Virus record (IMG/VR): IMGVR_UViG_3300036939_000057 | Location: 1-40,377 of that record | Origin: a virus | Reading direction: 5' to 3' (one strand) | Length of the DNA: 40,377 nt | Part shown: one piece after another, positions 1 through 40,377 of the stretch | Layout: each line of letters opens with the position of its first letter | Numbering within the stretch: the first letter of the stretch is position 1 | The notes under the pieces: model-generated | The model's input: only the letters and a program-made list of their open reading frames with translations | Told to the model about the DNA's origin: nothing | The model's database searches: none | Made by a program: the position numbers and the translations under genes

Positions 1-36
1 TTGCCTGAGAAAGATGTGGAAGATTTGGAGCGTAAG

Positions 37-62
37 GAAAAACTAAAAGGCTTCGAAAAGCC
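37..62 (-). terminator. Host tRNA-Gly terminator, now left of attL
   Basis: On the minus strand a GGCTT/AAGCC stem with a TTCG tetraloop is followed by TTTTAGTTTTT. Before integration this would have ended tRNA-Gly transcription about 27 nt past the tRNA 3' end. In the lysogen it lies downstream of the leftward phage late operon. Confidence 0.7.
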
Positions 63-77
63 CTCTGATGCGCTAAG

Positions 78-127
78 GATTAGTATTGAAGCGGGCGACG
101 AGACTCGAACTCGCAACCCTCAGCTTG
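78..127. repeat. attL: 50-bp direct repeat with 3' remnant of tRNA-Gly
   Basis: Identical to 40251..40300. Positions 90..127 equal the last 38 nt of the tRNA (minus strand): discriminator U, acceptor 3' strand, T arm, variable loop, 3' anticodon stem and three anticodon-loop bases. Identity stops inside the anticodon loop, as is usual for tyrosine-recombinase crossover sites in tRNA genes. The 5' half of the tRNA is absent here, so this copy is not functional. Confidence 0.95.
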
Positions 128-25876: not shown

Positions 25877-26404
25877 ATGACCAATTTAGCTAAAAAAATC
25901 GAACTGCTGGCCAACGTCGCGATCATTGTCGTCGCCCTTTTACTCGGGGTCGTTTTAGTTAAACGTTACCTGTTGCCGCAAGCTCAATCACCTCAAGCTC
26001 AAGCACGGATTCAGCCTGGGACTAAACTCTCAGTGCCGGGAATCGAGTGGGGCAAGAGTGAACGAACTTTATTGATGGTGCTTTCGACGACTTGCCGCTA
26101 TTGCACAGAGAGTGCCCCGTTTTATCGAAGGCTCGCGCAGGAAAAGGCGGGGAAGGGGAAGGTGAGCTTAGTGGCTGTCCTGCCTCAGAGCACCAGTGAT
26201 TCACAGAAGTACTTAAATGACCTCGGCGTCGCCGTTGACGACACCAGACAGGCTGCGCTCACGGAGGTGCAAGTCAGGGCGACGCCCACGCTCATCTTAG
26301 CCGACCAGACCGGTTCGGTGGTCGAGTCGTGGGTAGGAAAGTTACCGGACGAGCAGGAGGGTGACGTACTGAGGCGCTTCTTGGAGGAACGCCCCGGCAA
26401 GTGA
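25877..26404 (+). CDS. Membrane-anchored thioredoxin-like thiol-disulfide oxidoreductase
   Basis: A 175-aa protein. Residues about 12-30 form an N-terminal membrane anchor, so the rest would face the periplasm. The thioredoxin fold begins about residue 48 (GTKLSVPGIEWGKSERTLLMVLSTTC). The redox motif is C73-R-Y-C76 and the cis-proline is P137 in VRATPTLIL. It most resembles TlpA/redoxin-type reductants or isomerases. Two exported Cys-rich genes follow on the same strand and one faces it, which suggests they are its substrates. That link is inferred from neighbourhood only. RBS CAGGAG is well placed. Confidence 0.8.
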   Translation: MTNLAKKIELLANVAIIVVALLLGVVLVKRYLLPQAQSPQAQARIQPGTKLSVPGIEWGKSERTLLMVLSTTCRYCTESAPFYRRLAQEKAGKGKVSLVAVLPQSTSDSQKYLNDLGVAVDDTRQAALTEVQVRATPTLILADQTGSVVESWVGKLPDEQEGDVLRRFLEERPGK

Positions 26405-26434
26405 GGAAACGCTCACGGTCAAAATGTGTGAGAT

Positions 26435-26481
26435 AAGAAGGGGGAGTTAGGATACTTTATCCTAACTCCCCCTTCTTTATT
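26435..26481. terminator. Strong bidirectional terminator between convergent genes
   Basis: A perfect 20-bp inverted repeat (26435..26454 and 26458..26477) with a 3-nt loop, followed by TTATT on the plus strand. It sits between the thioredoxin-like gene and the opposing Cys-rich gene and would stop both. Confidence 0.8.
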
Positions 26482-26517
26482 GCGTCTCTGCTTGAACGCT
26501 GCTGTCTTTCGTGTCAA

Positions 26518-26790
26518 TTATTGAGGATTCTTTCCATGCCCCACCGTCCTCACTTTTCTTGACGATACTGATGACGCTCCACAATCCGGGAAGGTCACGT
26601 CCCACGCTTGCTCGCAGCATGACACTGCCCTGTCAATGTCTTGATCAGAGAGTGTGTCGCATACAGCTTCACACTCGGTACAGGAAGTAGCCGCACAAGA
26701 ACAGGCAACGACCGCGCTGGCTGGCTTTGAAGTGACAAAGGCCAGCGAGCAAAGCAGCACGGCTAACACTAAGAGGCGTTTCATTAACAT
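26518..26790 (-). CDS. Exported Cys-rich small protein (8 Cys)
   Basis: A 90-aa protein from ATG 26790, chosen for the strong GGAAGGAG RBS; a longer in-frame version lacks one. Residues about 1-25 are a Sec signal peptide (MKRLLVLAVLLCSLAFV, ending AVVA or ASA). The mature part has eight Cys: C-x-C-x4-C-x2-C-x3-C, then CC and a final C, followed by a basic Ser/Lys tail. It probably folds with disulfides outside the cytoplasm. No known family. It converges on the thioredoxin-like gene. Confidence 0.65.
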   Translation of the reverse strand: MLMKRLLVLAVLLCSLAFVTSKPASAVVACSCAATSCTECEAVCDTLSDQDIDRAVSCCEQAWDVTFPDCGASSVSSRKVRTVGHGKNPQ

Positions 26791-26814
26791 AGAATTCTCC
26801 TTCCGCAAGGTGGT

Positions 26815-26838
26815 AAGTGTCACTATAAATGGACACTT
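26815..26838. promoter_or_regulatory. Operator-like inverted repeat upstream of Cys-rich gene
   Basis: AAGTGTC-N10-GACACTT is a perfect 7-bp inverted repeat. Its spacer contains TATAGT on the minus strand, a plausible -10 box for the gene starting at 26790. A dimeric regulator bound here would cover the promoter. The rest of the 311-bp gap 26791..27101 holds only the plus promoter at 26976 and the repeat leader at 27057. Confidence 0.45.
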
Positions 26839-26975
26839 GGCTAAGTTGGGCCGGCGGGAGCGGAACTCTTCGGTAAGAGGAGGGTGAGACTCCCGTCAAC
26901 GTGAGGTGTGCGTCCGACGAGTCCAGAGTTGTCGAAGGACGGACACGGGCAATGCGCTCAGCATACATTAAGAGA

Positions 26976-27004
26976 TTGACAACTACAATTCACAGGAATA
27001 GGGT
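26976..27004 (+). promoter_or_regulatory. Promoter of the 18-Cys protein gene
   Basis: TTGACA-N17-TAGGGT on the plus strand: perfect -35 and optimal spacing, weak -10. It lies 98 nt before ATG 27102. Confidence 0.45.
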
Positions 27005-27056
27005 AGCGAATACAGATTCCTTAAACGGCAAGAGCCTCACTGCCTGTCGGGTCTCG

Positions 27057-27097
27057 CTCCTGCTTTAACCTCAACCGCAACGACACTCACCAGGAGA
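27057..27097 (+). repeat. Shared leader repeat, copy 1
   Basis: CTCCTGCTTTAACCTCAACC followed by a CACTCACCAGGAG stretch, immediately upstream of the gene at 27102. A near-identical copy (one T deleted, then diverging to an AAGGAG RBS) lies at 27608..27649 before the next Cys-rich gene. Confidence 0.6.
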
Positions 27098-27101
27098 AAA
27101 T

Positions 27102-27563
27102 ATGCAAACGATATACAAAAGGCTGATGATATTCGGTTTACTTTGTATCTGTCTGATTGTCTTCGGCCTCTCTGATGAGATCGAGACTGTTTACGCCAGA
27201 CCTTGCTTTCAGGAGTGTGATGCTAACAGAGCGATGTGCGAAGACAATTGCGCAGTTAATTGTACCGACAATGGCGACTTACCCTGTGATAGCTGCCTTG
27301 CAGATTGCCGGTATCACTATCAGTCTTGCGCGAGAGTCGCGATTTCCTGTTATGACTCCGGTCCGTCATATACTCCGAACTGCCAAGTTGATTTCACACC
27401 ACATTGCCCAGTAATTAATGGTCAGCCTAATTGTTCGCATCAGGACGCTCATTACGGGTATACGTTAACCTGTCAAACTCTCGGCGGAAACAACTGTGTG
27501 GCATGCCCTGACCACGACTGGCGTTGTACAGCCAACGGTGGTTTCACGCCCTCGTGTTATTAA
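27102..27563 (+). CDS. Exported Cys-rich protein (18 Cys)
   Basis: A 153-aa protein. Residues about 1-30 form a signal peptide (basic KRLMIFGLLCICLIVFGL core). The mature part carries about 18 cysteines in spaced pairs (CFQEC, CEDNC, CDSC, CVAC), with polar and aromatic residues between. It ends CTANGGFTPSCY. No recognised family; the spacing suggests a repeat-based disulfide-rich fold. RBS CAGGAG. It shares its leader repeat with the next gene, so the two were probably duplicated or are co-regulated. Confidence 0.65.
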   Translation: MQTIYKRLMIFGLLCICLIVFGLSDEIETVYARPCFQECDANRAMCEDNCAVNCTDNGDLPCDSCLADCRYHYQSCARVAISCYDSGPSYTPNCQVDFTPHCPVINGQPNCSHQDAHYGYTLTCQTLGGNNCVACPDHDWRCTANGGFTPSCY

Positions 27564-27607
27564 GCCGGCGTTCTTATCTTTGGAACATTTCCGTTGACAA
27601 CGTCACA

Positions 27608-27649
27608 CTCCTGCTTAACCTCAACCTCGGACAACTCTCACATAAGGAG
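27608..27649 (+). repeat. Shared leader repeat, copy 2
   Basis: CTCCTGCTTAACCTCAACC matches copy 1 (27057) except one missing T, then AACTCTCAC and the AAGGAG RBS of the gene at 27655. A TTGACAAC stretch lies about 10 nt upstream, as also occurs at the promoter at 26976. Confidence 0.6.
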
Positions 27650-27654
27650 CAAAG

Positions 27655-27936
27655 ATGAAAACGATATTGATGTCGAGAATTTCAAGGAAGGTCTTGATTC
27701 TTACCTTTCTCTTGGTCGGTTTAGTATTTGTTGGATCAAGCGGTAGCGTCCAACAGGCTGCGCCGGTTCGATGCTGTGAAGACTGCGCGCATGACCGAAG
27801 CGTTCCGTATGGGGATGATGAGGCAGCATATAGTTATTGCACCGCTCAATGCGGAGCTTCCTCCGGCACATGTTTCAACAACTGTCGGAATAGTATCTAC
27901 AGTTGTTGGTCTACTTGTGACACTGACTGTAACTAA
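27655..27936 (+). CDS. Exported Cys-rich small protein (10 Cys)
   Basis: A 93-aa protein. Residues about 1-36 form a signal peptide (MSRISRKVLILTFLLVGLVFVG). The mature ~57 residues contain ten Cys: CCEDC, YCTAQC, TCFNNC, CWSTC, DC, i.e. repeated C-x3-C units like its neighbour. It ends CDTDCN. Function unknown. A strong AAGGAG RBS and a shared leader repeat support it as a real gene. Confidence 0.65.
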   Translation: MKTILMSRISRKVLILTFLLVGLVFVGSSGSVQQAAPVRCCEDCAHDRSVPYGDDEAAYSYCTAQCGASSGTCFNNCRNSIYSCWSTCDTDCN

Positions 27937-28014
27937 CGGCAACAGATGCGTACCGTCAGGCTGCCACTTGACACCGTCCCGGAAATGAATAGAATCCGCG
28001 CCGGATGCTCACGA

Positions 28015-28057
28015 GTGGAGGCGACGCCCTTGGCAAGGACACGCCGCCTCCGCTTTT
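28015..28057 (+). terminator. Terminator after the 10-Cys protein gene
   Basis: GGAGGCG (28017..28023) pairs with CGCCTCC (28045..28051) across 21 nt, followed by GCTTTT. It closes the 27.1-27.9 kb unit. It lies upstream of the small peptide gene at 28120, which then needs its own promoter or read-through. Confidence 0.6.
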
Positions 28058-28119
28058 CTCAACCTATCCGCGCAGCACTCGCAAGTTGCCTCTCAACCCA
28101 GATTCTGAAGGAGTACGAA

Positions 28120-28257
28120 ATGAGAAAGTTAATGGCGACAGTAGTCAGCATTATCACTTCAATCTGTCACTCCAAGTGTCCGACCTGCAAAGAGCAATGT
28201 ATCGGTGGTGCCCACCCCGGCGGCTATCACGGCTGCTCCAATGGGCATGCTTGGTAA
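28120..28257 (+). CDS. Cys/His-rich mini-protein (45 aa)
   Basis: ATG 28120 follows GAAGGAG at good spacing. The product has a short hydrophobic start (MRKLMATVVSIITSI) and then CHSKCPTCKEQC, a GGAHPGGYHGC stretch and GHAW. Five Cys and four His could bind zinc, or form disulfides if exported. The hydrophobic stretch is too short for a confident signal peptide. It may be the fourth member of the Cys-rich set or an unrelated zinc knuckle. Confidence 0.5.
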   Translation: MRKLMATVVSIITSICHSKCPTCKEQCIGGAHPGGYHGCSNGHAW

Positions 28258-28277: not shown

Positions 28278-29381
28278 TTACGATTTACGACGCCGTCGGC
28301 GACTCTTCCGGGCGCACTTCGGGGTGCGCTTTGGTCTCGGCCGCGGCCACGGCAGATTGAGCATGCTGATGACGCGCTTCTTGGCGCGCTCGCCGCCCCG
28401 CTTGTATCGTGCCGTCGTCGAGACGTCCGTGTGGCCGCACAAATCCCTGACGGTCTCGACGTCCGCCCCGGAGTCGAGCATGTTCGTGACGAGCGTCCGG
28501 CGCAGGTCGTGCGGCGAGAGGTGCGCGAGTCCGGCTTGGCGCGCGCGCCGCCCGAGCGCGAGATAGACAGCCGTCCCGGAGAGGGGGCGTAACAAAACCT
28601 CGCCGCCTTTCCTGACCGGGCACAGGAGCGCGCCGGGGCAGCGACCGCGCACGTCGAGCCAGCCATCGACGGCGCGCTCCACTCCCGCATCGAGCGGGAC
28701 CGTGCGTTCCTTCTGTCCCTTGCCCCGAACTCTGAGGCTCCCGCGCTCGCCCTGCACGTCGGCGAGCGTGAGCGCGGCGCACTCGGCCCGGCGCAGTCCC
28801 GAGGCGAGCAGGCCGATGAGGCAGGCGTCACGCGCGCCGGCTGGGCCGTCGTCGGCGGCGCAGGCGTCCAGCAGGACGGAGATCTCCGTCCGGGCGAGCG
28901 CGCGTCCGGCCGGCAGAGTCGTCCCGCGCACGCCGTGCACCTCGCGGATGCGGTCGTATTGCTCGACCGACATCTGGCCGAGGTTCTTCGCCGCCCGGGC
29001 GACGCTTCTCAGCGCCGAGAGCGTCATGTTGACGGTCGAGGGGGAGAGGTTCTGCGCCTGGAGATAAGTGCGCACGGCGACGACGTGCTCGAAGCGCAGC
29101 TCGTGCCAGCGCAAGCTGCCCAAAGTAGCACCGAGTAGGTGGGCGGCGCGGTCGAGGCGGGCGCGTGTCGAGCGGCGCCCGGAGGGCTGTAATTGAGCCA
29201 GAAAGCAGGCCGCCGGGTTGAGATCGGAGAGGTCCGGAGGGGAAATTGAAAGTGGCGCGCCAGTTGAAATGGAGGGTGACCGGGAAATGACCCCGGAAAC
29301 GGGCACTAAAGCGAGGCGGGGGCGCACTTTAGAGCCGTCGCCGCCTGTCGGCGGATTAGTTATGTGATTATATTTTCTCAT
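28278..29381 (-). CDS. Second tyrosine recombinase (Xer/integron-like)
   Basis: A 367-aa protein with all catalytic residues: R197 in SGLRRAECAALTL, candidate K221/K224 in GKGQKERTVPL, H291-x-x-R294 in HDLRRT, H317 in CGHTD and Y326 in TTARYKRG. The core-binding domain starts about 55; the C-terminus is a long basic tail. It is read with the early leftward genes, 9.6 kb from attR, and so is not the att-proximal integrase. Possible roles are dimer resolution of a circular replicon or a second integration specificity. Confidence 0.8.
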   Translation of the reverse strand: MRKYNHITNPPTGGDGSKVRPRLALVPVSGVISRSPSISTGAPLSISPPDLSDLNPAACFLAQLQPSGRRSTRARLDRAAHLLGATLGSLRWHELRFEHVVAVRTYLQAQNLSPSTVNMTLSALRSVARAAKNLGQMSVEQYDRIREVHGVRGTTLPAGRALARTEISVLLDACAADDGPAGARDACLIGLLASGLRRAECAALTLADVQGERGSLRVRGKGQKERTVPLDAGVERAVDGWLDVRGRCPGALLCPVRKGGEVLLRPLSGTAVYLALGRRARQAGLAHLSPHDLRRTLVTNMLDSGADVETVRDLCGHTDVSTTARYKRGGERAKKRVISMLNLPWPRPRPKRTPKCARKSRRRRRKS

Positions 29382-29702: not shown

Positions 29703-30611
29703 TCAACCAGCCGCTGCCTCGGGTGAGCCGCGCGCTTCACCCGCCTCTGCATCAGCGCGCGCCTTCAGCCTCGCGACCAGTCCGTTGTGCGGGCACTTCG
29801 CCACTCCCTTTCCTCGCCCACCCGGCGACCAGAAGCCGGTTCCTTCACAATCCGGGCACTCTTTTGGATTAAGCAGCACGGAGGTTGGCGGCAGCGGCAG
29901 CGGCGGGTTGAGGTGCTGCTCGACCTGCCAGTCGTGCTTCCCCGTTTCGAGCGCCTGCGTCACCCACCCGTCGCCGAGACCTTTGGCGCGGGCGCAACTC
30001 ACGACCTGATCGAGCGTGAACCTGGTCTTCCAACTCGACACCGCCTCTCTCTCTTTCTCCGGTTCGTTACCCGTACCCTCGGAATTGCCCGCACGCGGAG
30101 AGAGAGAGAGTTCTTGAATGGTTCCTGCAGAAGGTTCTTCTAATGGTTCTTCTGTCCTTATAGGGGGGTGTGGGGGGATGATCACCTCCTGATCACTTTG
30201 ATCACCAGGTGAACACTTTGATCGTACAGTGATCACTTTGTTCACCTGGTGATCAGTTTGTTCACCTCCTGATCGGTCTGCCAGGCGCAAACTGAAGTGC
30301 TCGAGGTTCTGTTGCCAGATGTCGCAGACGGAAATCACGTCGCGCCCTTTGAGTTTGCGCACCTTAATTAACCCGCGCTCGACCAGCTCCCGCTTCGCCG
30401 TGCTGACCTGTCCGGCGCTCATCCTCGTAGCCTGGGCGAGTTCCCGACAATTTTCGTTGCACACCCCGTTGTCACCGGCGCGCCGTTTCACGTGGACGTA
30501 GAGAGCTATCTCGAAGGGACTAAGCCCCATATCGTCAATCGAGTTCGGAATCTCCGTCCGATACTTGTGGCTGGCGGCCGTGGCCTGCTGCGAGGCCGGT
30601 TGTGTTTTCAT
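29703..30611 (-). CDS. Replication initiator-like wHTH protein containing the putative origin
   Basis: A 302-aa protein from ATG 30611 (MKTQPASQQATAASHKYRTEIPNSIDDM). Residues about 25-100 form a winged helix typical of phage replication initiators: GLSPFEIALYVHVKRRAGDNGVC, LAQATRMSAGQVSTAKRELVERGLIKV. The middle (about 110-150) is encoded by five 20-bp DNA iterons. The C-terminal domain has VVSCARAKGLGDGWVTQALE and a CPDC...C motif. This is the lambda O-type arrangement, with the origin inside the initiator gene. No helicase or polymerase gene is present, so host replication proteins would be recruited. Confidence 0.7.
   Translation of the reverse strand: MKTQPASQQATAASHKYRTEIPNSIDDMGLSPFEIALYVHVKRRAGDNGVCNENCRELAQATRMSAGQVSTAKRELVERGLIKVRKLKGRDVISVCDIWQQNLEHFSLRLADRSGGEQTDHQVNKVITVRSKCSPGDQSDQEVIIPPHPPIRTEEPLEEPSAGTIQELSLSPRAGNSEGTGNEPEKEREAVSSWKTRFTLDQVVSCARAKGLGDGWVTQALETGKHDWQVEQHLNPPLPLPPTSVLLNPKECPDCEGTGFWSPGGRGKGVAKCPHNGLVARLKARADAEAGEARGSPEAAAG
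30181..30280 (-). repeat. Five tandem 20-bp iterons, putative replication origin
   Basis: Blocks at 30181, 30201, 30221, 30241 and 30261 are exactly 20 bp apart. Each is built from TCACC/GGTGA and GATCA elements with a CTTTG-like end. Twenty is not a multiple of three, so the repetition is at DNA level, not protein level. A purine/pyrimidine-biased tract with AATGGTTCTTCT-like repeats lies next to it at about 30115..30160, as an origin-unwinding region would. Confidence 0.7.
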
Positions 30612-30703
30612 CGTCACCGGGTTAAGCGGTTGGTCTGTTTGAAGCTGCCTAAAAGAAATGGCGCGTAATCCTCCGGCTGTCAGCCAGTCGCGCCCTTCGT
30701 CCT

Positions 30704-30943
30704 TTACCGCCGGACTTGTACCTGACGAATCTTCTCCAGCGCGCCCGGCGGCCACCGCTGCCGGAGGCCGTCGCCATGCATGAGGTTCGGGTCGGGGTCG
30801 AAGTATTCGGCCACGGTGTCCACGTAATCTATCGAGTAGAAGTTGATGGGTTTAGGGGTGCCGAGGGGTTCAGCGATCTGATGCCGCCCGCGCTGGTCGT
30901 CCACGCCCTCCTGCGGCGGGGCTGTCGGGTGCTGTGTGCTCAT
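30704..30943 (-). CDS. Small early protein of unknown function
   Basis: A 79-aa protein starting MSTQHPTAPPQEGVDDQRGRHQ, with a disordered N-terminus and a C-terminal region SIDYVDTVAEYFDPDPNLMHGDGLRQRWPPGALEKIRQ. A strong GAAGGAG RBS precedes the ATG. No family recognised. Confidence 0.5.
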   Translation of the reverse strand: MSTQHPTAPPQEGVDDQRGRHQIAEPLGTPKPINFYSIDYVDTVAEYFDPDPNLMHGDGLRQRWPPGALEKIRQVQVRR

Positions 30944-33605: not shown

Positions 33606-35012
33606 ATGCTCACATCCATCCTCATCGGACTTTTCCTGATCGCGGCGGCGGCTGCGGCCTTCTTATTCAACAGGCTGCGCTCCGCGGAAACTAAGCATCG
33701 AGCACTATCTGAGGAACATGCTGGCCTGAAGACTCGCTATCAAGGCATCATTGATGTGGAGACGGAGAAGCAACGCGTGCTTGGAGCACTAGAATTAGAG
33801 CGTTCCCGTTTACAGACAGACATTTCAACGCTTCAGGATAATCAGCGCGCCGTCGTAGGGGAGTTACAGGCACGCCAAAGGCAGGGCGAGTTTGAATTGG
33901 AAACCCTCCGTTCAAACATCGCGCGCATGCATGCCGATCTGAAGGCGCTTGAGGAAGTATCCGATCTGCAGTCTTTCGGCTTTTACAAACCCAAGTACAA
34001 CTTTGAATCTTCCCCACTTTACCTAGCCAAGCTCGAACAAATTCGCGAACAGCAGAAGCGGATGATCAAAGATAAGACTGCCGCCGTGGGCCTCATCGAG
34101 TGGACGGTCAACGGAAGCAAAACTGAAGGGCGCAAGCAAATAAATCAAACCTTGAAACTCATCCTGCGAGCTTTCAACGGAGAAAGCGATGCGGCCATCG
34201 CGAAGGTTAAATATAACAATATCGCTGTCATGGAGACTCGCATCCGCAAGGCTTGGGAAGCGATGGGTAACCTAGCGGCTGTCCAGCAATGCCATATCAC
34301 AAAAGGTTACTTGGATCTCAAGTTACAGGAGCTTTACCTCGTCCACGAGTATCAGGAGAAGGTACAAGAGGAGAAGGAAGAGCAGCGGCGCATCCGCGAG
34401 CAAATGCGCGAGGAAGAGATTGCCCAGCGTGAACTGGAGAAAGCAAAGCAGGACGCTGAGCGGGAGGAAGCTCGTTATGAAACCGCACTGCGCAAGGCTC
34501 GGGAAGAGGCAGAACGTGCCGTTGGAGACAAACAGCAAAAATTGCTCGGTCAGATCGAAGAACTAGAGCGTCGGCTCGAAGAAGCCCACACCATTAAGGA
34601 GCGGGCCATCTCGCGAGCGCAGATGACCCGCTCGGGGCACGTCTATGTCATCTCCAACGTCGGTTCTTTCGGCGAGCAGGTTTATAAAATCGGTATGACG
34701 CGCCGCCTTGACCCGCTCGACAGAGTTCGGGAACTTGGCGACGCCTCAGTCCCGTTTCAGTTCGACGTTCATGCGATCATCTACTCGGAAGATGCACCAG
34801 GACTTGAGAACAAACTCCACCGTATGTTCCATGATCGTCGTGTCAATCGCATAAATGAGCGCAAAGAGTTTTTCCGCGTGACTATTGAAGAAATCGCCGA
34901 AGCCGTACGCAGCAATCATGGTGAAATCGAATTCACCTTAGCTGCTGAAGCAGCGGACTATAGAAAGACCTTGGCGCTTCTGCAAGAGAGCAATGGAGCG
35001 TCAGCAGCTTGA
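33606..35012 (+). CDS. Membrane-anchored DUF4041/T5orf172 (GIY-YIG-like) protein
   Basis: A 468-aa protein. Residues 1-22 form an N-terminal membrane segment, then coiled coil to about 105. DUF4041 spans about 115-250 (LQSFGFYKPKYNFESSPLYLAKLEQIREQQKRMIKDKTAA). A second coiled coil (about 250-345) precedes the T5orf172/MUG113-type domain: GHVYVISNV, QVYKIGMTRR, LDRVRELGDASVPFQFDVHAI, ENKLHRMF, RKEFFRV. Candidate catalytic residues are Y of VYVI, R of DRVREL and E of LENKLH. This family is widespread in phages with unclear function. A membrane-tethered nuclease could act on incoming DNA, such as in superinfection exclusion. That is inference. Confidence 0.75.
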   Translation: MLTSILIGLFLIAAAAAAFLFNRLRSAETKHRALSEEHAGLKTRYQGIIDVETEKQRVLGALELERSRLQTDISTLQDNQRAVVGELQARQRQGEFELETLRSNIARMHADLKALEEVSDLQSFGFYKPKYNFESSPLYLAKLEQIREQQKRMIKDKTAAVGLIEWTVNGSKTEGRKQINQTLKLILRAFNGESDAAIAKVKYNNIAVMETRIRKAWEAMGNLAAVQQCHITKGYLDLKLQELYLVHEYQEKVQEEKEEQRRIREQMREEEIAQRELEKAKQDAEREEARYETALRKAREEAERAVGDKQQKLLGQIEELERRLEEAHTIKERAISRAQMTRSGHVYVISNVGSFGEQVYKIGMTRRLDPLDRVRELGDASVPFQFDVHAIIYSEDAPGLENKLHRMFHDRRVNRINERKEFFRVTIEEIAEAVRSNHGEIEFTLAAEAADYRKTLALLQESNGASAA

Positions 35013-36019: not shown

Positions 36020-37144
36020 ATGAGATTAAAAGACTCACTTGTCAGCATCGCGGCTAGAGAAAAGAGCGGAGCTGATACATCTCGTAGATATGACTATCAA
36101 AAGAACTGGGCACTATGCCAAATTCTTGAGAAACATAAAACCGGGGATGACTACCTATTTATATTTGAACATCACGATGACGTCTTAATGCTTGATTCAG
36201 AAATTGAACCCCGAGAGGTATGTTTCTATCAGATTAAATCAAAAGACAGCGGCCATTGGAGTATGAGCAAATTATTGGAAAGGAAGAGGGGCAAAGACGG
36301 AACCCAATTATTCTCATATGTCGGGAAAATGTATGACAATAAAATCAAGTTTCAGGGGCAAACTAAATCACTTAACTTTGTCTCTAACGCGCGGTTTAAT
36401 TTCAACCTGAAGCCTGTTTTTGCGAGCAAGCCCTCACTCTCCAAGACCACCATTTGCGCAAAAGAGATAGAAGACGATGAACTCTCCAAGATCAAGGATC
36501 AACTTGTAGCCGAACACGCCCTGAAAGAGCTTCCTGAGTTCGAGGATATTACTTTCTTCATCGCTACGGATTTGAGTTTGGGAGATCACGAGAAACATAC
36601 TAAGGGCAAGCTTAGCGATTTTCTTGAAACTACTTTTTCTGAACGGAATTTTAAAGTCGGACCGATTCATCGAACGGTCTTTGATGAGATTAGACGCAAG
36701 AACAATTACAGTGAAGATATTAATTCTTTCGACGAGTTGGTTAAGCATAAGTCAATAGGCAGGAGTCGATTTGAAGAAATTCTCCAAACCATTGGTGTTC
36801 AGACCGATTTTGACGAAGCTTGGGCTACATTTGAGGCCCGACTAAACGTAGAGGGTTTTCCGTTTGGTCAGTTACTGAAAATCAAGAATGAGTGGAGAAG
36901 ATGTGAGGTTGATCGGATGGACAGTGGAAACCTTGTGATCCAACGTATCGTAACAACGGCGCGTACTGCAGTGCAGCAGGCTAAAGAGACAAAAACCTTA
37001 TCCAGTTTGGTGACTGAGGCATCTTTATACTGTGAGCAGAACTTACAAAAGTTCTCTACACTGCATAGCTCCGAATACATCATGGCGATGGTTTTGATGG
37101 AGTATTATGAGCAACAACTTCCAGCGACTGATTCGAAATCTTAG
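36020..37144 (+). CDS. Cap4/DUF4297-type nuclease (Lamassu LmuA-like effector)
   Basis: A 374-aa protein. Residues about 20-75 match the DUF4297 (Cap4-type) dsDNA nuclease: RYDYQKNWALCQILEKHKTGDDYLFIFE, then DDVLMLDS and CFYQIKSK (Q71, K73), the PD-(D/E)XK-type core. The remaining ~270 residues are an uncharacterised helical region. The next gene encodes an SMC-like ATPase 12 bp downstream. This two-gene pairing is that of Lamassu-type anti-phage systems with a Cap4 effector, in which the ATPase senses DNA ends and releases the nuclease. No third LmuC-like gene is recognised. The gene is visibly AT-richer than the phage core. Confidence 0.78.
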   Translation: MRLKDSLVSIAAREKSGADTSRRYDYQKNWALCQILEKHKTGDDYLFIFEHHDDVLMLDSEIEPREVCFYQIKSKDSGHWSMSKLLERKRGKDGTQLFSYVGKMYDNKIKFQGQTKSLNFVSNARFNFNLKPVFASKPSLSKTTICAKEIEDDELSKIKDQLVAEHALKELPEFEDITFFIATDLSLGDHEKHTKGKLSDFLETTFSERNFKVGPIHRTVFDEIRRKNNYSEDINSFDELVKHKSIGRSRFEEILQTIGVQTDFDEAWATFEARLNVEGFPFGQLLKIKNEWRRCEVDRMDSGNLVIQRIVTTARTAVQQAKETKTLSSLVTEASLYCEQNLQKFSTLHSSEYIMAMVLMEYYEQQLPATDSKS

Positions 37145-37155
37145 GAAAAAGAAAC

Positions 37156-38883
37156 ATGAAAAGCTTCGTCTTAAAAGAGATATTGCTCCTCTCAGCGATG
37201 GAAAGAAAGGCGAGACGAGTCAAGTTCGATCCTCGAACAACGATAGTCCTCGGAGCAAACGACACAGGTAAATCATCTTTATTAAAAAGTATCTATAGGG
37301 CCTTCGGAGCAGAGCCCGCAAGGACCCACCTCAAATGGAAGTCAGCGGAGGTTTATAACGTTGTACGATTTTCGTTAGATGGCGCAGATTACTCGATTTT
37401 CCAGCACAACAAATTGTATGCAATTTTCGATTCGGAAAATCATCTATTAAATATATTCACTAGCGTAACTAATGAACTAGGCCCCTACCTAGCTGATTTA
37501 TTTGATTTTAAAGTTAAGCTGAATAGTAAGACGGGTGAGTCCGTTACTCCTCCACCCGCATACTTCTTCCTGCCCTTCTATATCGACCAAGATAGCAGTT
37601 GGGTGCACAACTGGTCATCATTCGCACGCCTTCAACAATTCAGCAATTGGAAGGCTGGTTTGGCCGAATATCACACGGGCATTCGGCCGAATAAGTACTA
37701 CGAGTTTAAAGCTGAGAGTGATCGACTAAGTAAGGAAATCAAGGAAGCTATTTCAGAGTTGAACGCGCTTGAGGCCGCAAAGGAACGGATTAAGCGAGAA
37801 TTTCCTGCAGGTACTTTTGACGTTGATATTGAATCATTCAAGGTTGAAATAGAAAGACTCTTAACAGAGTGCCAAGAGCTCAACAAAATTGAAGAAAAGT
37901 ACAAAGAAGACCTTATAAGCTTAAGAAATGAGAAAACCATCATTGGATACCAAATTAAAGTAATTGAACACGCTATGAAAGAGAAAGCTGCTGACTACGC
38001 TTTCGTGACGGATGTACTGATTGACGAGCACGTAGATTGCCCAACATGCGGTGCCGTGTATGAGAATTCTTTCGCAGAAAGGTTTGCAATTGCTCAAGAC
38101 GAGGACCGATGTCGTGATCTTATATTGCAGTTAAAGCAGGATGAGATAGCGATAAGCAAAAAAATAGACGCTCTTAACGTCGAGTATCTAGCACACCGAA
38201 ACAAATTCAAGGAGGTCTCCAGAATTCTCGAAGCCAAACGAAGCGAGATTAGGTTACGTGATGTGATCGACTCGCACGGTAAGAAGGAAGTGGACCGATT
38301 ATTTGAAGAGCAGGTCACAAAGTACAAAGGCGAAATATTCAAAAAGGATATGGAACTCAATCAATATAAAGATTCGTTAAAACATCTTGAAGAGCAAACG
38401 AAGATGCTTAGAAGAGAAATTACAAACTTTTACATTGATCACATGCGCGCCAACCTAAGTAAGTTGGACGTGCTTACGTTAGCAGAGAGTTCATACAAAA
38501 AGGTCTCTAGTAACATCATTGAACAAGGAAGTGATCTGCCACGATCGTTGTTAGCTTATTACTACAGCATCCTCTACACGATGCGGAATTACTCTTCTGC
38601 AACATTTTGTCCAATTGTGATCGACTCTCCGAACCAGCAAGGACAGGACAGAGAAAGCCTGAAGAAAATGCTCCGCTTTATCTTGGAGCAGCAACCTGAG
38701 AATAGCCAACTCGTGCTGGGGCTCGAAGATTTGAGTGGCGTTGAACCGCGAGGCAAGGTCATTGAACTCAAAACAAAATATGGACTTCTCCGGAGAGAAG
38801 AATACAAAGCCATCGCTCAAGAGTTAGCTCCTCTGCAGAGTATAGTTATGGAATCACTGGTTAGACGAAAGGCTGATATTTAA
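37156..38883 (+). CDS. SMC/Rad50-like ATPase (Lamassu LmuB-like)
   Basis: A 575-aa protein. Walker A is GANDTGKSS (33-41). Two coiled-coil arms flank a CPTCG motif (295-299), a Rad50-like zinc-hook CxxC. An ABC-signature-like GSDLPRSLLAYYY (458-470) is followed by CPIVIDSPNQQGQD (485-498), the Walker-B region. Size and order (NTPase half, coil, hook, coil, NTPase half) fit SMC-like sensor proteins. Paired with the Cap4-type nuclease it resembles Lamassu LmuB. There is no visible frameshift. The gene is AT-richer than the phage core. Confidence 0.8.
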   Translation: MKSFVLKEILLLSAMERKARRVKFDPRTTIVLGANDTGKSSLLKSIYRAFGAEPARTHLKWKSAEVYNVVRFSLDGADYSIFQHNKLYAIFDSENHLLNIFTSVTNELGPYLADLFDFKVKLNSKTGESVTPPPAYFFLPFYIDQDSSWVHNWSSFARLQQFSNWKAGLAEYHTGIRPNKYYEFKAESDRLSKEIKEAISELNALEAAKERIKREFPAGTFDVDIESFKVEIERLLTECQELNKIEEKYKEDLISLRNEKTIIGYQIKVIEHAMKEKAADYAFVTDVLIDEHVDCPTCGAVYENSFAERFAIAQDEDRCRDLILQLKQDEIAISKKIDALNVEYLAHRNKFKEVSRILEAKRSEIRLRDVIDSHGKKEVDRLFEEQVTKYKGEIFKKDMELNQYKDSLKHLEEQTKMLRREITNFYIDHMRANLSKLDVLTLAESSYKKVSSNIIEQGSDLPRSLLAYYYSILYTMRNYSSATFCPIVIDSPNQQGQDRESLKKMLRFILEQQPENSQLVLGLEDLSGVEPRGKVIELKTKYGLLRREEYKAIAQELAPLQSIVMESLVRRKADI

Positions 38884-38963: not shown

Positions 38964-40145
38964 ATGGGAGTCAAACAGGAGTGGAGCGAGAAGCACCGCC
39001 GTAAAGTCTGGGGTTACGATGTGCGCATCCGCGTTGGCAACAAGGGCAAGCGTGTGCGCCGGTTCGGCTTCTCATCAAGGGCCGCCGCCGAACTGGCTCT
39101 GTCGAAAGTGCGCGTCACTGAAAACGAGCGGCGAGCCGGCGTCATCCCCGAGGAACCGCCTGCCATCATCACCATTCGGCAGCTCGTCGAGCGCCGCGTC
39201 AAAGTCCTGCCCGTTCCCAAAGGCGCACCCGGATACTACTCTCGCAACCAGGCCATCGGCGACCTCGAACGATTCCTCTCAATGACCGACGGCTCGATGC
39301 CGGTCGAGGGTCTTACCACGGCCCACGTCGCCGCCTACCGCGACGACCGTCTCGCCGCCGGGCTCCAGCCGCAGACCGTTGCTCGCGAGATCACGAACCT
39401 GCAGGCGTGCTTTAACGCCGCGAGCGAATACTTCCCGGAACTGGAGACGTGGCGGCCCCCGAAGCGCCCCAAGCTCAAAGTGCCGAAGGGCCAACGCGAG
39501 GCCACATTTGCCCCTGAGGACATCGCTCACCTCCTCGCCTACCTCAGGCGTCCCCGCGACGAGACACACGTGCGCTACAGCCGCGAGCCGATGCGCTCAT
39601 ATCGCGCCCGGCTCGATGCCGCCGATGCCTTCCAGATCGCCCTGCAGACGGCAGGGCGTTCGGGCGAAGTCTATAAGCTGCGATGGGCGGACGTGCTCTG
39701 GCATAAGGGTGCGCTCAGGGTAGATTCGACAAAGCTTGATGAGGAGGGGGTCATCTTCCTGCCCGAATCTCTGCTGGAGATGCTCAAGCGCAGGCGCGCC
39801 GAACAGCCGCCCGCGGGGAGATGGATATTCCCTTCCGACCTCCACCCGGATGAGCACGTCGCCCGCGGCTTCACCGCGCACCTCCGACGGGCCGCGCTCC
39901 ATCTCGGCATCCCCTGGGGCTATGAGACACCAAGCGGCGTCGTCTTCCACACAACGCGTCACACGGCGACTACGGCCATGCTCGACGCCGGCTATGATCT
40001 GCCGACCGTGCAGGCCCAGACCCGCCACAGCGACAAGACAATGCTCCTGCGCTACGGCCACGCCTCGACTCGCTCGCGCCGCGCGGCCGTTACTGCCCTC
40101 GACCAGTTCGCCCCTGCGGCTGCGGCCGACGAAGGACAGGAATGA
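38964..40145 (+). CDS. int: Prophage integrase (tyrosine recombinase)
   Basis: A 393-aa protein. Residues 1-60 are an arm-binding-type N-terminus (WGYDVRIRVGNKGKRVRRFGF); the core-binding domain spans about 70-165. Catalytic residues: R232 (TAGRSGEVYKLRW), K257 (VDSTKLDEEG), H329-x-x-R332 (FHTTRHTATTAM), H355 (QTRHSDKT) and Y364 (LLRYGHAS). The gene ends about 105 bp from attR and points towards it, the standard arrangement, so it is the likely tRNA-Gly integrase. RBS GGAG lies about 12 nt before ATG. GC-rich, unlike the defence pair upstream. Confidence 0.92.
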   Translation: MGVKQEWSEKHRRKVWGYDVRIRVGNKGKRVRRFGFSSRAAAELALSKVRVTENERRAGVIPEEPPAIITIRQLVERRVKVLPVPKGAPGYYSRNQAIGDLERFLSMTDGSMPVEGLTTAHVAAYRDDRLAAGLQPQTVAREITNLQACFNAASEYFPELETWRPPKRPKLKVPKGQREATFAPEDIAHLLAYLRRPRDETHVRYSREPMRSYRARLDAADAFQIALQTAGRSGEVYKLRWADVLWHKGALRVDSTKLDEEGVIFLPESLLEMLKRRRAEQPPAGRWIFPSDLHPDEHVARGFTAHLRRAALHLGIPWGYETPSGVVFHTTRHTATTAMLDAGYDLPTVQAQTRHSDKTMLLRYGHASTRSRRAAVTALDQFAPAAAADEGQE

Positions 40146-40172: not shown

Positions 40173-40206
40173 GCAATATGGGCAACTTGGGTAACATGGG
40201 TAGGGT
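40171..40206 (+). repeat. Four degenerate 9-bp repeats beside attR
   Basis: AGGCAATAT, GGGCAACTT, GGGTAACAT and GGGTAGGGT lie in perfect 9-bp phase between the arm sites and the terminator. Possible binding sites for an excision factor. Confidence 0.4.
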
Positions 40207-40209
40207 CAA

Positions 40210-40240
40210 TAAAAAAGAAAGAACTCCGAAAAGCCCCTTC
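40210..40240 (-). terminator. Phage-borne terminator serving the tRNA in the lysogen
   Basis: On the minus strand AAGGGGCT pairs (with G-U pairs) with AGTTCTTT, followed by C and six T. It lies 23 nt past the tRNA 3' end, the same register as the host terminator beyond attL. Confidence 0.55.
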
Positions 40241-40250
40241 TTTAGTTAAA

Positions 40251-40300
40251 GATTAGTATTGAAGCGGGCGACGAGACTCGAACTCGCAACCCTCAGCTTG
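40251..40300. repeat. attR: 50-bp direct repeat within intact tRNA gene
   Basis: Identical to attL (78..127). Positions 40263..40300 are the 3' half of the functional tRNA. The integrase restores the tRNA by supplying this segment from the phage. Confidence 0.95.
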
Positions 40301-40334
40301 GGAAGCTGATGCGCTACCATTGCGCCACACCCGC
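40263..40334 (-). tRNA. tRNA-Gly (anticodon CCC)
   Basis: 72 nt without encoded CCA. Acceptor GCGGGTG/CGCCCGC with discriminator U, D stem GCGC/GCGC, anticodon stem TCAGC/GCTGA around loop TTCCCAA (anticodon CCC), variable GGGTT, T stem GCGAG/CTCGT with TTCGAGT loop. All stems pair (two G-U pairs). Its 3' half is the integration site, and the full gene is preserved at attR. Confidence 0.95.
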
Positions 40335-40377
40335 TCAAAGGGAATCGCCCGCACCGGCGGCACAAGCGTTTCAGGTG

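What the first reader, a model, noticed from the sequence alone, without database searches (positions are those of the whole stretch)
25877..28257. Cargo of a membrane thioredoxin-like protein with exported Cys-rich mini-proteins
Seen: a CRYC thioredoxin-fold protein with a membrane anchor, three proteins with signal peptides and 8, 18 and 10 Cys, and a 45-aa Cys/His-rich peptide, all between early and late modules with their own promoters and terminators. Inferred: the oxidoreductase may fold or protect these secreted disulfide-rich proteins. Functions such as toxin, bacteriocin-like factor, surface coat or metal-binding cannot be told from sequence. I know of no described system with this make-up.
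Basis: partly seen in the sequence, partly recalled or inferred. Interest (0 to 1): 0.75.

Follow-up and report, generated by a model that had tools for sequence, protein, structure and literature searches.

The report
Prophage cargo: disulfide-folding enzyme with clients
A prophage of a soil-type bacterium (phylum Acidobacteriota) carries a membrane-anchored thioredoxin-like enzyme together with three exported cysteine-rich mini-proteins, a pairing that recurs across the chromosomes of that phylum and looks like an undescribed 'folding helper plus fast-evolving secreted disulfide proteins' module.

Summary
In detail: TRX (25877-26404, CRYC, N-terminal anchor), three Sec-type Cys-rich proteins A, B and C (8, 18 and 10 mature Cys), and D, a 45-aa Cys/His peptide. 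They form a low-GC island in an apparently complete prophage (122-nt end repeats, tRNA-Gly). Relatives place the prophage in Acidobacteriota. The pairing is real. Of 63 chromosomal TRX relatives in the phylum, 50 have an exported Cys-rich ORF within 2.7 kb, about 80-fold over the flanks. All eight genome-wide matches to B, and the three best to C, lie directly beside a TRX gene. Client types track TRX clades; 48/53 clients have even Cys counts; CX3C spacing is enriched. All six chromosomal B loci form a TRX-B-VWFA operon; the phage lacks VWFA. Best reading: TRX is a dedicated extracytoplasmic oxidase/isomerase for these proteins, carried as lysogenic-conversion cargo at a variable spot beside a recombinase. 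The related G001 prophage has another secreted protein there; a prophage-like locus in G031 has none. D looks like a zinc-ribbon peptide outside the set. The clients' role (surface partners or antagonists) is open. No other carrier phage was found. New variant of a known kind; interest 0.62.

The parts
25877..26404 (+). TRX: 175-aa membrane-anchored, extracytoplasmic thioredoxin-fold oxidoreductase (CRYC; cis-Pro TPT)
   Evidence: Pfam Redoxin 4e-6; Foldseek to ResA/DsbE/CcmG; chromosomal relatives up to 71% identical; dN/dS 0.20 against L054
26435..26477 (.). perfect 20-bp inverted repeat between convergent TRX and A; probable bidirectional terminator
   Evidence: I8; fold -38.9 kcal/mol, z -8.0
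26518..26790 (-). A: 90-aa exported protein, 8 mature Cys
   Evidence: signal-like N-terminus; one homologue in G161 (L128), E 1.2e-6, all 8 Cys kept, no TRX beside it
27051..27104 (+). 5' region of B, shared with C
   Evidence: alignment score 44 against shuffled maximum 24
27102..27563 (+). B: 153-aa exported protein, 18 mature Cys, CX3C-rich; principal client
   Evidence: six chromosomal homologues, 17 invariant Cys, each next to a TRX gene
27602..27657 (+). 5' region of C, shared with B
27655..27936 (+). C: 93-aa exported protein, 10 Cys; second client
   Evidence: L081 E 9e-10, L066, L070, each about 20-30 bp downstream of a TRX gene
28120..28257 (+). D: 45-aa Cys/His peptide, probably zinc-ribbon-like and not part of the set
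   Evidence: homologue L161 with no signal peptide and no TRX nearby
28278..29381 (-). XerC-like tyrosine recombinase bordering the variable cargo spot
   Evidence: Phage_integrase 1e-28; 80% identical copy in the G001 prophage with other cargo beside it; 43% copy in G031 with none
6..127 (.). left attachment-type direct repeat of the prophage
   Evidence: D1, 77% identical
40179..40300 (.). right attachment-type repeat, overlapping tRNA-Gly 40261-40335

Best explanation
The island is a lysogenic-conversion cargo made of a dedicated extracytoplasmic thiol-disulfide catalyst and its exported disulfide-rich clients. TRX sits in the inner membrane with its thioredoxin domain outside the cytoplasm (inferred from the anchor and fold). 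Proteins A to C leave by the Sec route (inferred). TRX, with a C-x-[FY]-C centre rather than the CxPC of the ResA/CcmG reductases, introduces or shuffles their disulfides, and is probably re-oxidised by the host's VKOR (inferred). Shown: presence and conservation of the genes, linkage of B and C to TRX in chromosomes, co-segregation of client type with TRX clade, even Cys numbers, CX3C spacing, purifying selection on TRX. The module is native to Acidobacteriota chromosomes. The phage took up a TRX of the B-associated clade with B, added other clients under separate control, and keeps them at a variable spot next to a recombinase. Because chromosomal B genes always precede secreted VWFA genes, I favour a surface or extracellular partner function for B over a toxin, but only modestly.
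For: Linkage: 45 of 57 class loci and 50 of 63 phylum loci have an exported Cys-rich ORF within 2.7 kb; 0.74 per kb in the 500 bp downstream (20 of 21 on the same strand), against one in about 490 kb beyond 2.7 kb. Genome-wide B search over 162 genomes: 8 of 8 matches adjacent to TRX. C: the 3 best matches adjacent. Co-segregation on the TRX tree: 5 changes against 14.3 shuffled, 0 of 200. Even Cys count in 48 of 53 (p 3.5e-10 against one half; control ORFs 146 of 239); CX3C gaps 108 against 50 expected. 17 invariant Cys in B. C-x-[FY]-C in 54 of 58 family members. Fold and profile nearest ResA/DsbE/CcmG, all membrane-anchored extracytoplasmic thioredoxins. VKOR in 127 of 162 genomes of the class. 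Variable cargo spot.
Against: No biochemistry. ResA, CcmG and DsbE, the nearest solved relatives, are reductants, so a reducing or proofreading role is possible. 13 of 63 TRX loci show no client by my heuristic. In the phage TRX is separated from B by about 700 bp, gene A and a terminator, so there is no operon. A's homologue has no TRX beside it. The closest TRX relative (L054, 71%) has a different client. Signal peptides were called by a simple hydrophobicity rule. Even Cys counts would also fit metal sites.
Confidence: 0.62

Rival explanations
1. The Cys-rich proteins are secreted antagonists (bacteriocin-like or aimed at soil protists or fungi) that lysogens release, with TRX as their maturation enzyme, as in the SPbeta prophage's sublancin cluster.
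For: SPbeta carries a disulfide bacteriocin with thiol-disulfide oxidoreductases (PMC6391423). Clients are small, exported and change faster than TRX in most compared pairs. The leader is conserved above background signal peptides (cross-validated AUC 0.87) while mature parts differ.
Against: No immunity gene, processing transporter or peptidase in the cargo region. Chromosomal B is well conserved (17 invariant Cys) and tied to VWFA genes, which is unusual for a diversifying toxin.
Confidence: 0.25
2. Surface or extracellular partners: B and its kin bind or assemble with secreted VWFA proteins, and the prophage copy remodels the lysogen's surface (for example superinfection exclusion), using host VWFA proteins.
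For: TRX-B-VWFA(-VWFA) order in all six chromosomal B loci, VWFA near only 3 other TRX loci. Prophage cargo at this spot in G001 is also a secreted CarboxypepD_reg-type protein.
Against: TIGR03436 VWFA genes are numerous in Acidobacteria (own knowledge), so adjacency may be partly a matter of lineage. The phage lacks the VWFA gene. Other client types have other neighbours.
Confidence: 0.4
3. TRX is a reductant or repair enzyme that keeps exported thiol or metal-binding proteins reduced (metallothionein-like or redox-buffer role).
For: Nearest solved relatives ResA, CcmG and DsbE are reductants. D and some clients could bind metal.
Against: C-x-[FY]-C instead of CxPC; even Cys counts; no cytochrome c or DsbD-like gene recurs among the neighbour clusters.
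Confidence: 0.15
4. The genes are fortuitous bystanders picked up together from a chromosome, with no function for the phage.
For: Lower GC than the phage (0.49-0.54 against 0.63); only one phage seen with the set.
Against: Catalytic residues and all conserved Cys intact; dN/dS about 0.2 for TRX against its nearest relative; several clients gathered, good ribosome-binding sites, a shared 5' element for B and C.
Confidence: 0.12

Closest known systems
SPbeta prophage sublancin 168 cluster (sunA-sunT-bdbA-sunS-bdbB, sunI), PMC6391423
   Same: Prophage-borne secreted disulfide peptide with co-encoded thiol-disulfide oxidoreductases, carried for the lysogen's benefit.
   Different: No SunT-type transporter/peptidase, no glycosyltransferase and no immunity gene in the cargo region; clients use Sec-type signals; several clients per TRX; the enzyme is a ResA-like anchored TRX and BdbB was not compared.
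ResA/StoA/CcmG(DsbE)/TlpA membrane-anchored thioredoxins
   Same: N-terminal anchor, extracytoplasmic thioredoxin fold; nearest by profile and fold.
   Different: C-x-[FY]-C instead of CxPC; far below the curated cut-offs; neighbours are exported Cys-rich proteins, not cytochrome or spore genes.
Mia40/Erv1 oxidative folding of twin-CX3C proteins in mitochondria (reviews)
   Same: Works-like analogy: a dedicated oxidase for small CX3C proteins outside the cytosol.
   Different: Different fold (Mia40 is a CHCH protein) and route; no homology claimed or tested.
Prophage moron / lysogenic-conversion genes
   Same: Accessory genes of different GC with their own terminator at a variable spot between phage modules.
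   Different: This particular gene content is not in the 50,697 phage records or 72,556 plasmid records searched.

Membership tests
ResA/DsbE/CcmG-type anchored thioredoxin | N-terminal transmembrane anchor followed by a thioredoxin-fold domain with CxxC and cis-Pro | tested here: met
   Foldseek E 1e-6 to ResA, though the model is of low confidence (pLDDT 64)
ResA/DsbE/CcmG-type anchored thioredoxin | CxPC active-site motif | tested here: not met
   CRYC here; C-x-[FY]-C in 54 of 58 members, CxPC in none
ResA/DsbE/CcmG-type anchored thioredoxin | NCBIfam curated cut-off for StoA, ResA or DsbE | tested here: not met
   22 of 210, 20 of 170 and 15 of 123 bits
Sublancin-type prophage bacteriocin cluster | secreted cystine peptide plus thiol-disulfide oxidoreductase on a prophage | tested here: met
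   secretion and disulfides are predicted only
Sublancin-type prophage bacteriocin cluster | dedicated ABC transporter/peptidase and glycosyltransferase | tested here: not met
   no such ORF in 25.2-28.3 kb; the rest of the window was not exhaustively annotated
Sublancin-type prophage bacteriocin cluster | immunity gene and antibacterial activity | not testable with these tools
   no candidate gene seen; activity needs an assay
Chromosomal TRX plus exported Cys-rich module of Acidobacteriota (defined here) | TRX of the A4 family with an exported Cys-rich ORF within 2.7 kb | tested here: met
   window and 50 of 63 loci
Chromosomal TRX plus exported Cys-rich module of Acidobacteriota (defined here) | VWFA gene after B | tested here: not met
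   present in 6 of 6 chromosomal B loci, absent from the window
Prophage moron | accessory gene at a site that is empty or differently filled in related prophages | tested here: met
   G001 prophage has a 253-aa secreted protein there; G031 prophage-like locus has 118 bp between recombinase and next phage-type gene
Prophage moron | expression from the repressed prophage | not testable with these tools
   no transcriptome data

The most novel reading that the evidence does not exclude
Acidobacteriota possess an undescribed dedicated oxidative-folding module: a conserved anchored thioredoxin paired one-to-one with rapidly diversifying exported CX3C-rich mini-proteins that share a leader. A phage has turned it into multi-client cargo that reshapes the lysogen's surface or arms it against neighbours, functionally a bacterial counterpart of the mitochondrial Mia40 pathway for small CX3C proteins.
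Probability: 0.3. Interest if true: 0.82.

Novelty: new variant of a known kind. Interest (0 to 1): 0.62.

Why it matters
General oxidases (DsbA, VKOR-Trx) are thought to fold most exported disulfide proteins; dedicated enzyme-client pairs are few. Here a phylum-wide pairing ties one thioredoxin family to many unrelated Cys-rich exported proteins, so client specificity in disulfide folding becomes testable with natural pairs. It also gives a function-guided way into the unannotated small secreted proteins of abundant soil bacteria, and shows a phage trading in them.

Tried and rejected
Pfam, PHROGs and NCBIfam gave no family for A to D. Single-protein scans of IMG/VR with TRX, B or the recombinase, and a TRX-alignment scan, found no other phage with the set; tblastn in phages and plasmids found none. 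A profile of 20 TRX sequences was too diverse for the pattern scan. No solved structure resembles B by sequence. I considered that D belongs to the set and rejected it. I considered that the chromosomal TRX loci are themselves prophages; the closest (L054, L056, L057) show NRPS/PKS or housekeeping neighbours, not phage genes. Cytochrome-maturation function was considered and not supported (no such neighbour family). Most matches to A and C with E above about 0.003 look like chance and were not used.

Full report
WHERE IT LIES. The window is a whole IMG/VR virus record of 40,377 bp. A 122-nt direct repeat lies at its ends (6-127 and 40179-40300, 77% identical), with a tRNA-Gly(CCC) at 40261-40335 and a tyrosine integrase at 38964-40145 next to it. 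This is what an integrated, apparently complete prophage looks like. Late genes (terminase, portal, head, tail) run on the minus strand up to about 24.8 kb; the early/regulatory genes begin beyond the recombinase at 28278-29381. The closest terminases are two IMG/VR fragments (84% and 76% identical) that do not reach the cargo, and a prophage in an Acidobacteria MAG, JAIVJZ010000041.1 (67%). The host is therefore inferred to be an Acidobacteriota; it is not proven. The cargo has GC 0.49-0.54 against about 0.63 around it.

THE GENES. TRX 25877-26404 (+) has a hydrophobic anchor, CRYC and a cis-Pro TPT. A (26518-26790, -), B (27102-27563, +) and C (27655-27936, +) have signal-like N-termini and 8, 18 and 10 mature cysteines. 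A Shine-Dalgarno stands before each ATG. A perfect 20-bp stem lies between the convergent TRX and A genes. The 5' regions of B and C are alike over about 55 nt up to the start codon (score 44 against a shuffled maximum of 24) while their mature parts differ. D (28120-28257) is Cys/His-rich, but its nearest relative (48 aa, L161) has no signal peptide, shares a C..CPxC...C..H.GG.H.C...H.W pattern and has no TRX nearby. D looks like a small zinc-ribbon peptide and I leave it out of the set.

IS THE PAIRING REAL? Using the host MAG as centre, TRX relatives were found in 43 of 162 genomes of its class and in 20 of 396 sampled across the phylum. Around 57 class loci (18 kb each where contigs allowed) I counted exported Cys-rich ORFs (signal-like N-terminus, at least 6 Cys and 5% Cys in the mature part). 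45 of 57 loci have one within 2.7 kb. Density is 0.74 per kb in the first 500 bp downstream, 20 of 21 on the same strand. Pooled over both sides it is about 0.17 per kb inside 2.7 kb, against one hit in about 490 kb farther out, roughly 80-fold. Five of six further loci from outside the class also have one, making 50 of 63.

The reverse search is stronger, because it does not start from TRX. A profile of B run over all 162 genomes gave eight matches, six strong and two weak, and all eight lie directly beside a TRX relative. For C the three best matches do as well. A has one good homologue with all eight Cys kept (37% identical), but without TRX beside it.

DO THEY BELONG TOGETHER FUNCTIONALLY? 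On a maximum-likelihood tree the window's TRX falls in a supported set (99/93) with three B-bearing loci and L054. Four client arrangements need 5 changes on the TRX tree against 14.3 when shuffled, 0 of 200 as low. This may reflect shared descent as well as specificity, and the tree's bootstrap had not settled. The phage's C belongs to a client type that sits with another TRX clade, so the phage set is a composite. 48 of 53 same-strand clients have an even Cys number (p = 3.5e-10 against one half; other ORFs 146 of 239 even), and gaps of three residues between cysteines are twice as common as expected (108 against 50). Homologous clients are not independent, so these p-values are optimistic. 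B keeps 17 cysteines invariant among six homologues. TRX evolves under constraint (dN/dS 0.20 against L054), and clients usually change faster than TRX. Client leaders are recognised above background signal peptides by a cross-validated profile (AUC 0.87), with homologues across folds as a caveat.

WHAT KIND OF ENZYME. Profile and fold searches put TRX next to ResA, DsbE and CcmG. The active site is C-x-[FY]-C in 54 of 58 members and never CxPC, and no curated family accepts it. I therefore read it as an oxidase or isomerase rather than a CcmG/ResA-type reductase, on inference. A VKOR that could recycle it is present in 127 of 162 genomes of the class.

WHAT THE CLIENTS MAY DO. All six chromosomal B loci are followed by an acidobacterial VWFA gene, often two (TIGR03436), while only three other TRX loci have one nearby. 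This suggests an extracellular partner or surface role for B. The phage has TRX and B without the VWFA gene. A toxin role, as for the SPbeta prophage's sublancin, whose BdbB oxidoreductase forms its disulfides (PMC6391423), remains possible, but no immunity gene was seen.

A VARIABLE SPOT. In the related G001 prophage the recombinase (80% identical) and the flanking phage genes are kept, but the space holds a 253-aa secreted CarboxypepD_reg-like protein. A prophage-like locus in G031 with a 43% recombinase has only 118 bp there. So the set is accessory cargo.

LIMITS. Only one phage is known to carry the set; signal peptides were called by a simple rule; genome names are hidden in the survey; the literature library is open-access only and the searches there found no description of this pairing, which is weak evidence of novelty. 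No experiment has been done.

Noticed in passing
window 36020-38883: A complete Lamassu-type defence pair: LmuA-like Cap4/DUF4297 nuclease (E 6e-110) and LmuB-like ATPase (E 1e-205), at lower GC (about 0.42), beside the integrase.
   Followed up: partly
window 33606-35012: A PD-Lambda-1 defence protein (E 3e-170), so this prophage carries at least two known or candidate anti-phage systems besides the Cys-rich cargo.
   Followed up: partly
L056, L071, L075, L095, L101, L106: Conserved chromosomal order TRX - B - acidobacterial VWFA gene(s), found at every chromosomal B locus.
   Followed up: yes
L022, L060, L062, L069, L072, L077: A second chromosomal arrangement: TRX, a 243-265 aa exported protein without Pfam family, then a 350-470 aa Cys-rich exported protein; those read in full (L022, L072, L077) share a C-terminal domain (motif like DDAWLALDRNGNG..DNG.ELFGN) with no Pfam match.
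   Followed up: partly
L084, L086, L096, L099 and others: A third arrangement: small exported Cys-rich ORF about 2 kb upstream, a 600-700 aa protein of no known family, then TRX.
   Followed up: no
L054:1-8700: The TRX gene closest to the phage's (71%) lies just behind what looks like an NRPS/PKS gene cluster, with two small Cys-rich ORFs around it.
   Followed up: no
window 28278-29381 and 38964-40145: Two different tyrosine recombinases; the one at the cargo spot is conserved in related prophages, the other sits at the tRNA-Gly attachment site. Whether the first drives cargo exchange is unknown.
   Followed up: partly
window 30179-30274: Cluster of TGATCACC/TGTTCACC repeats with a 34-nt imperfect inverted repeat inside the 29703-30755 ORF, possibly a replication origin or operator.
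   Followed up: no
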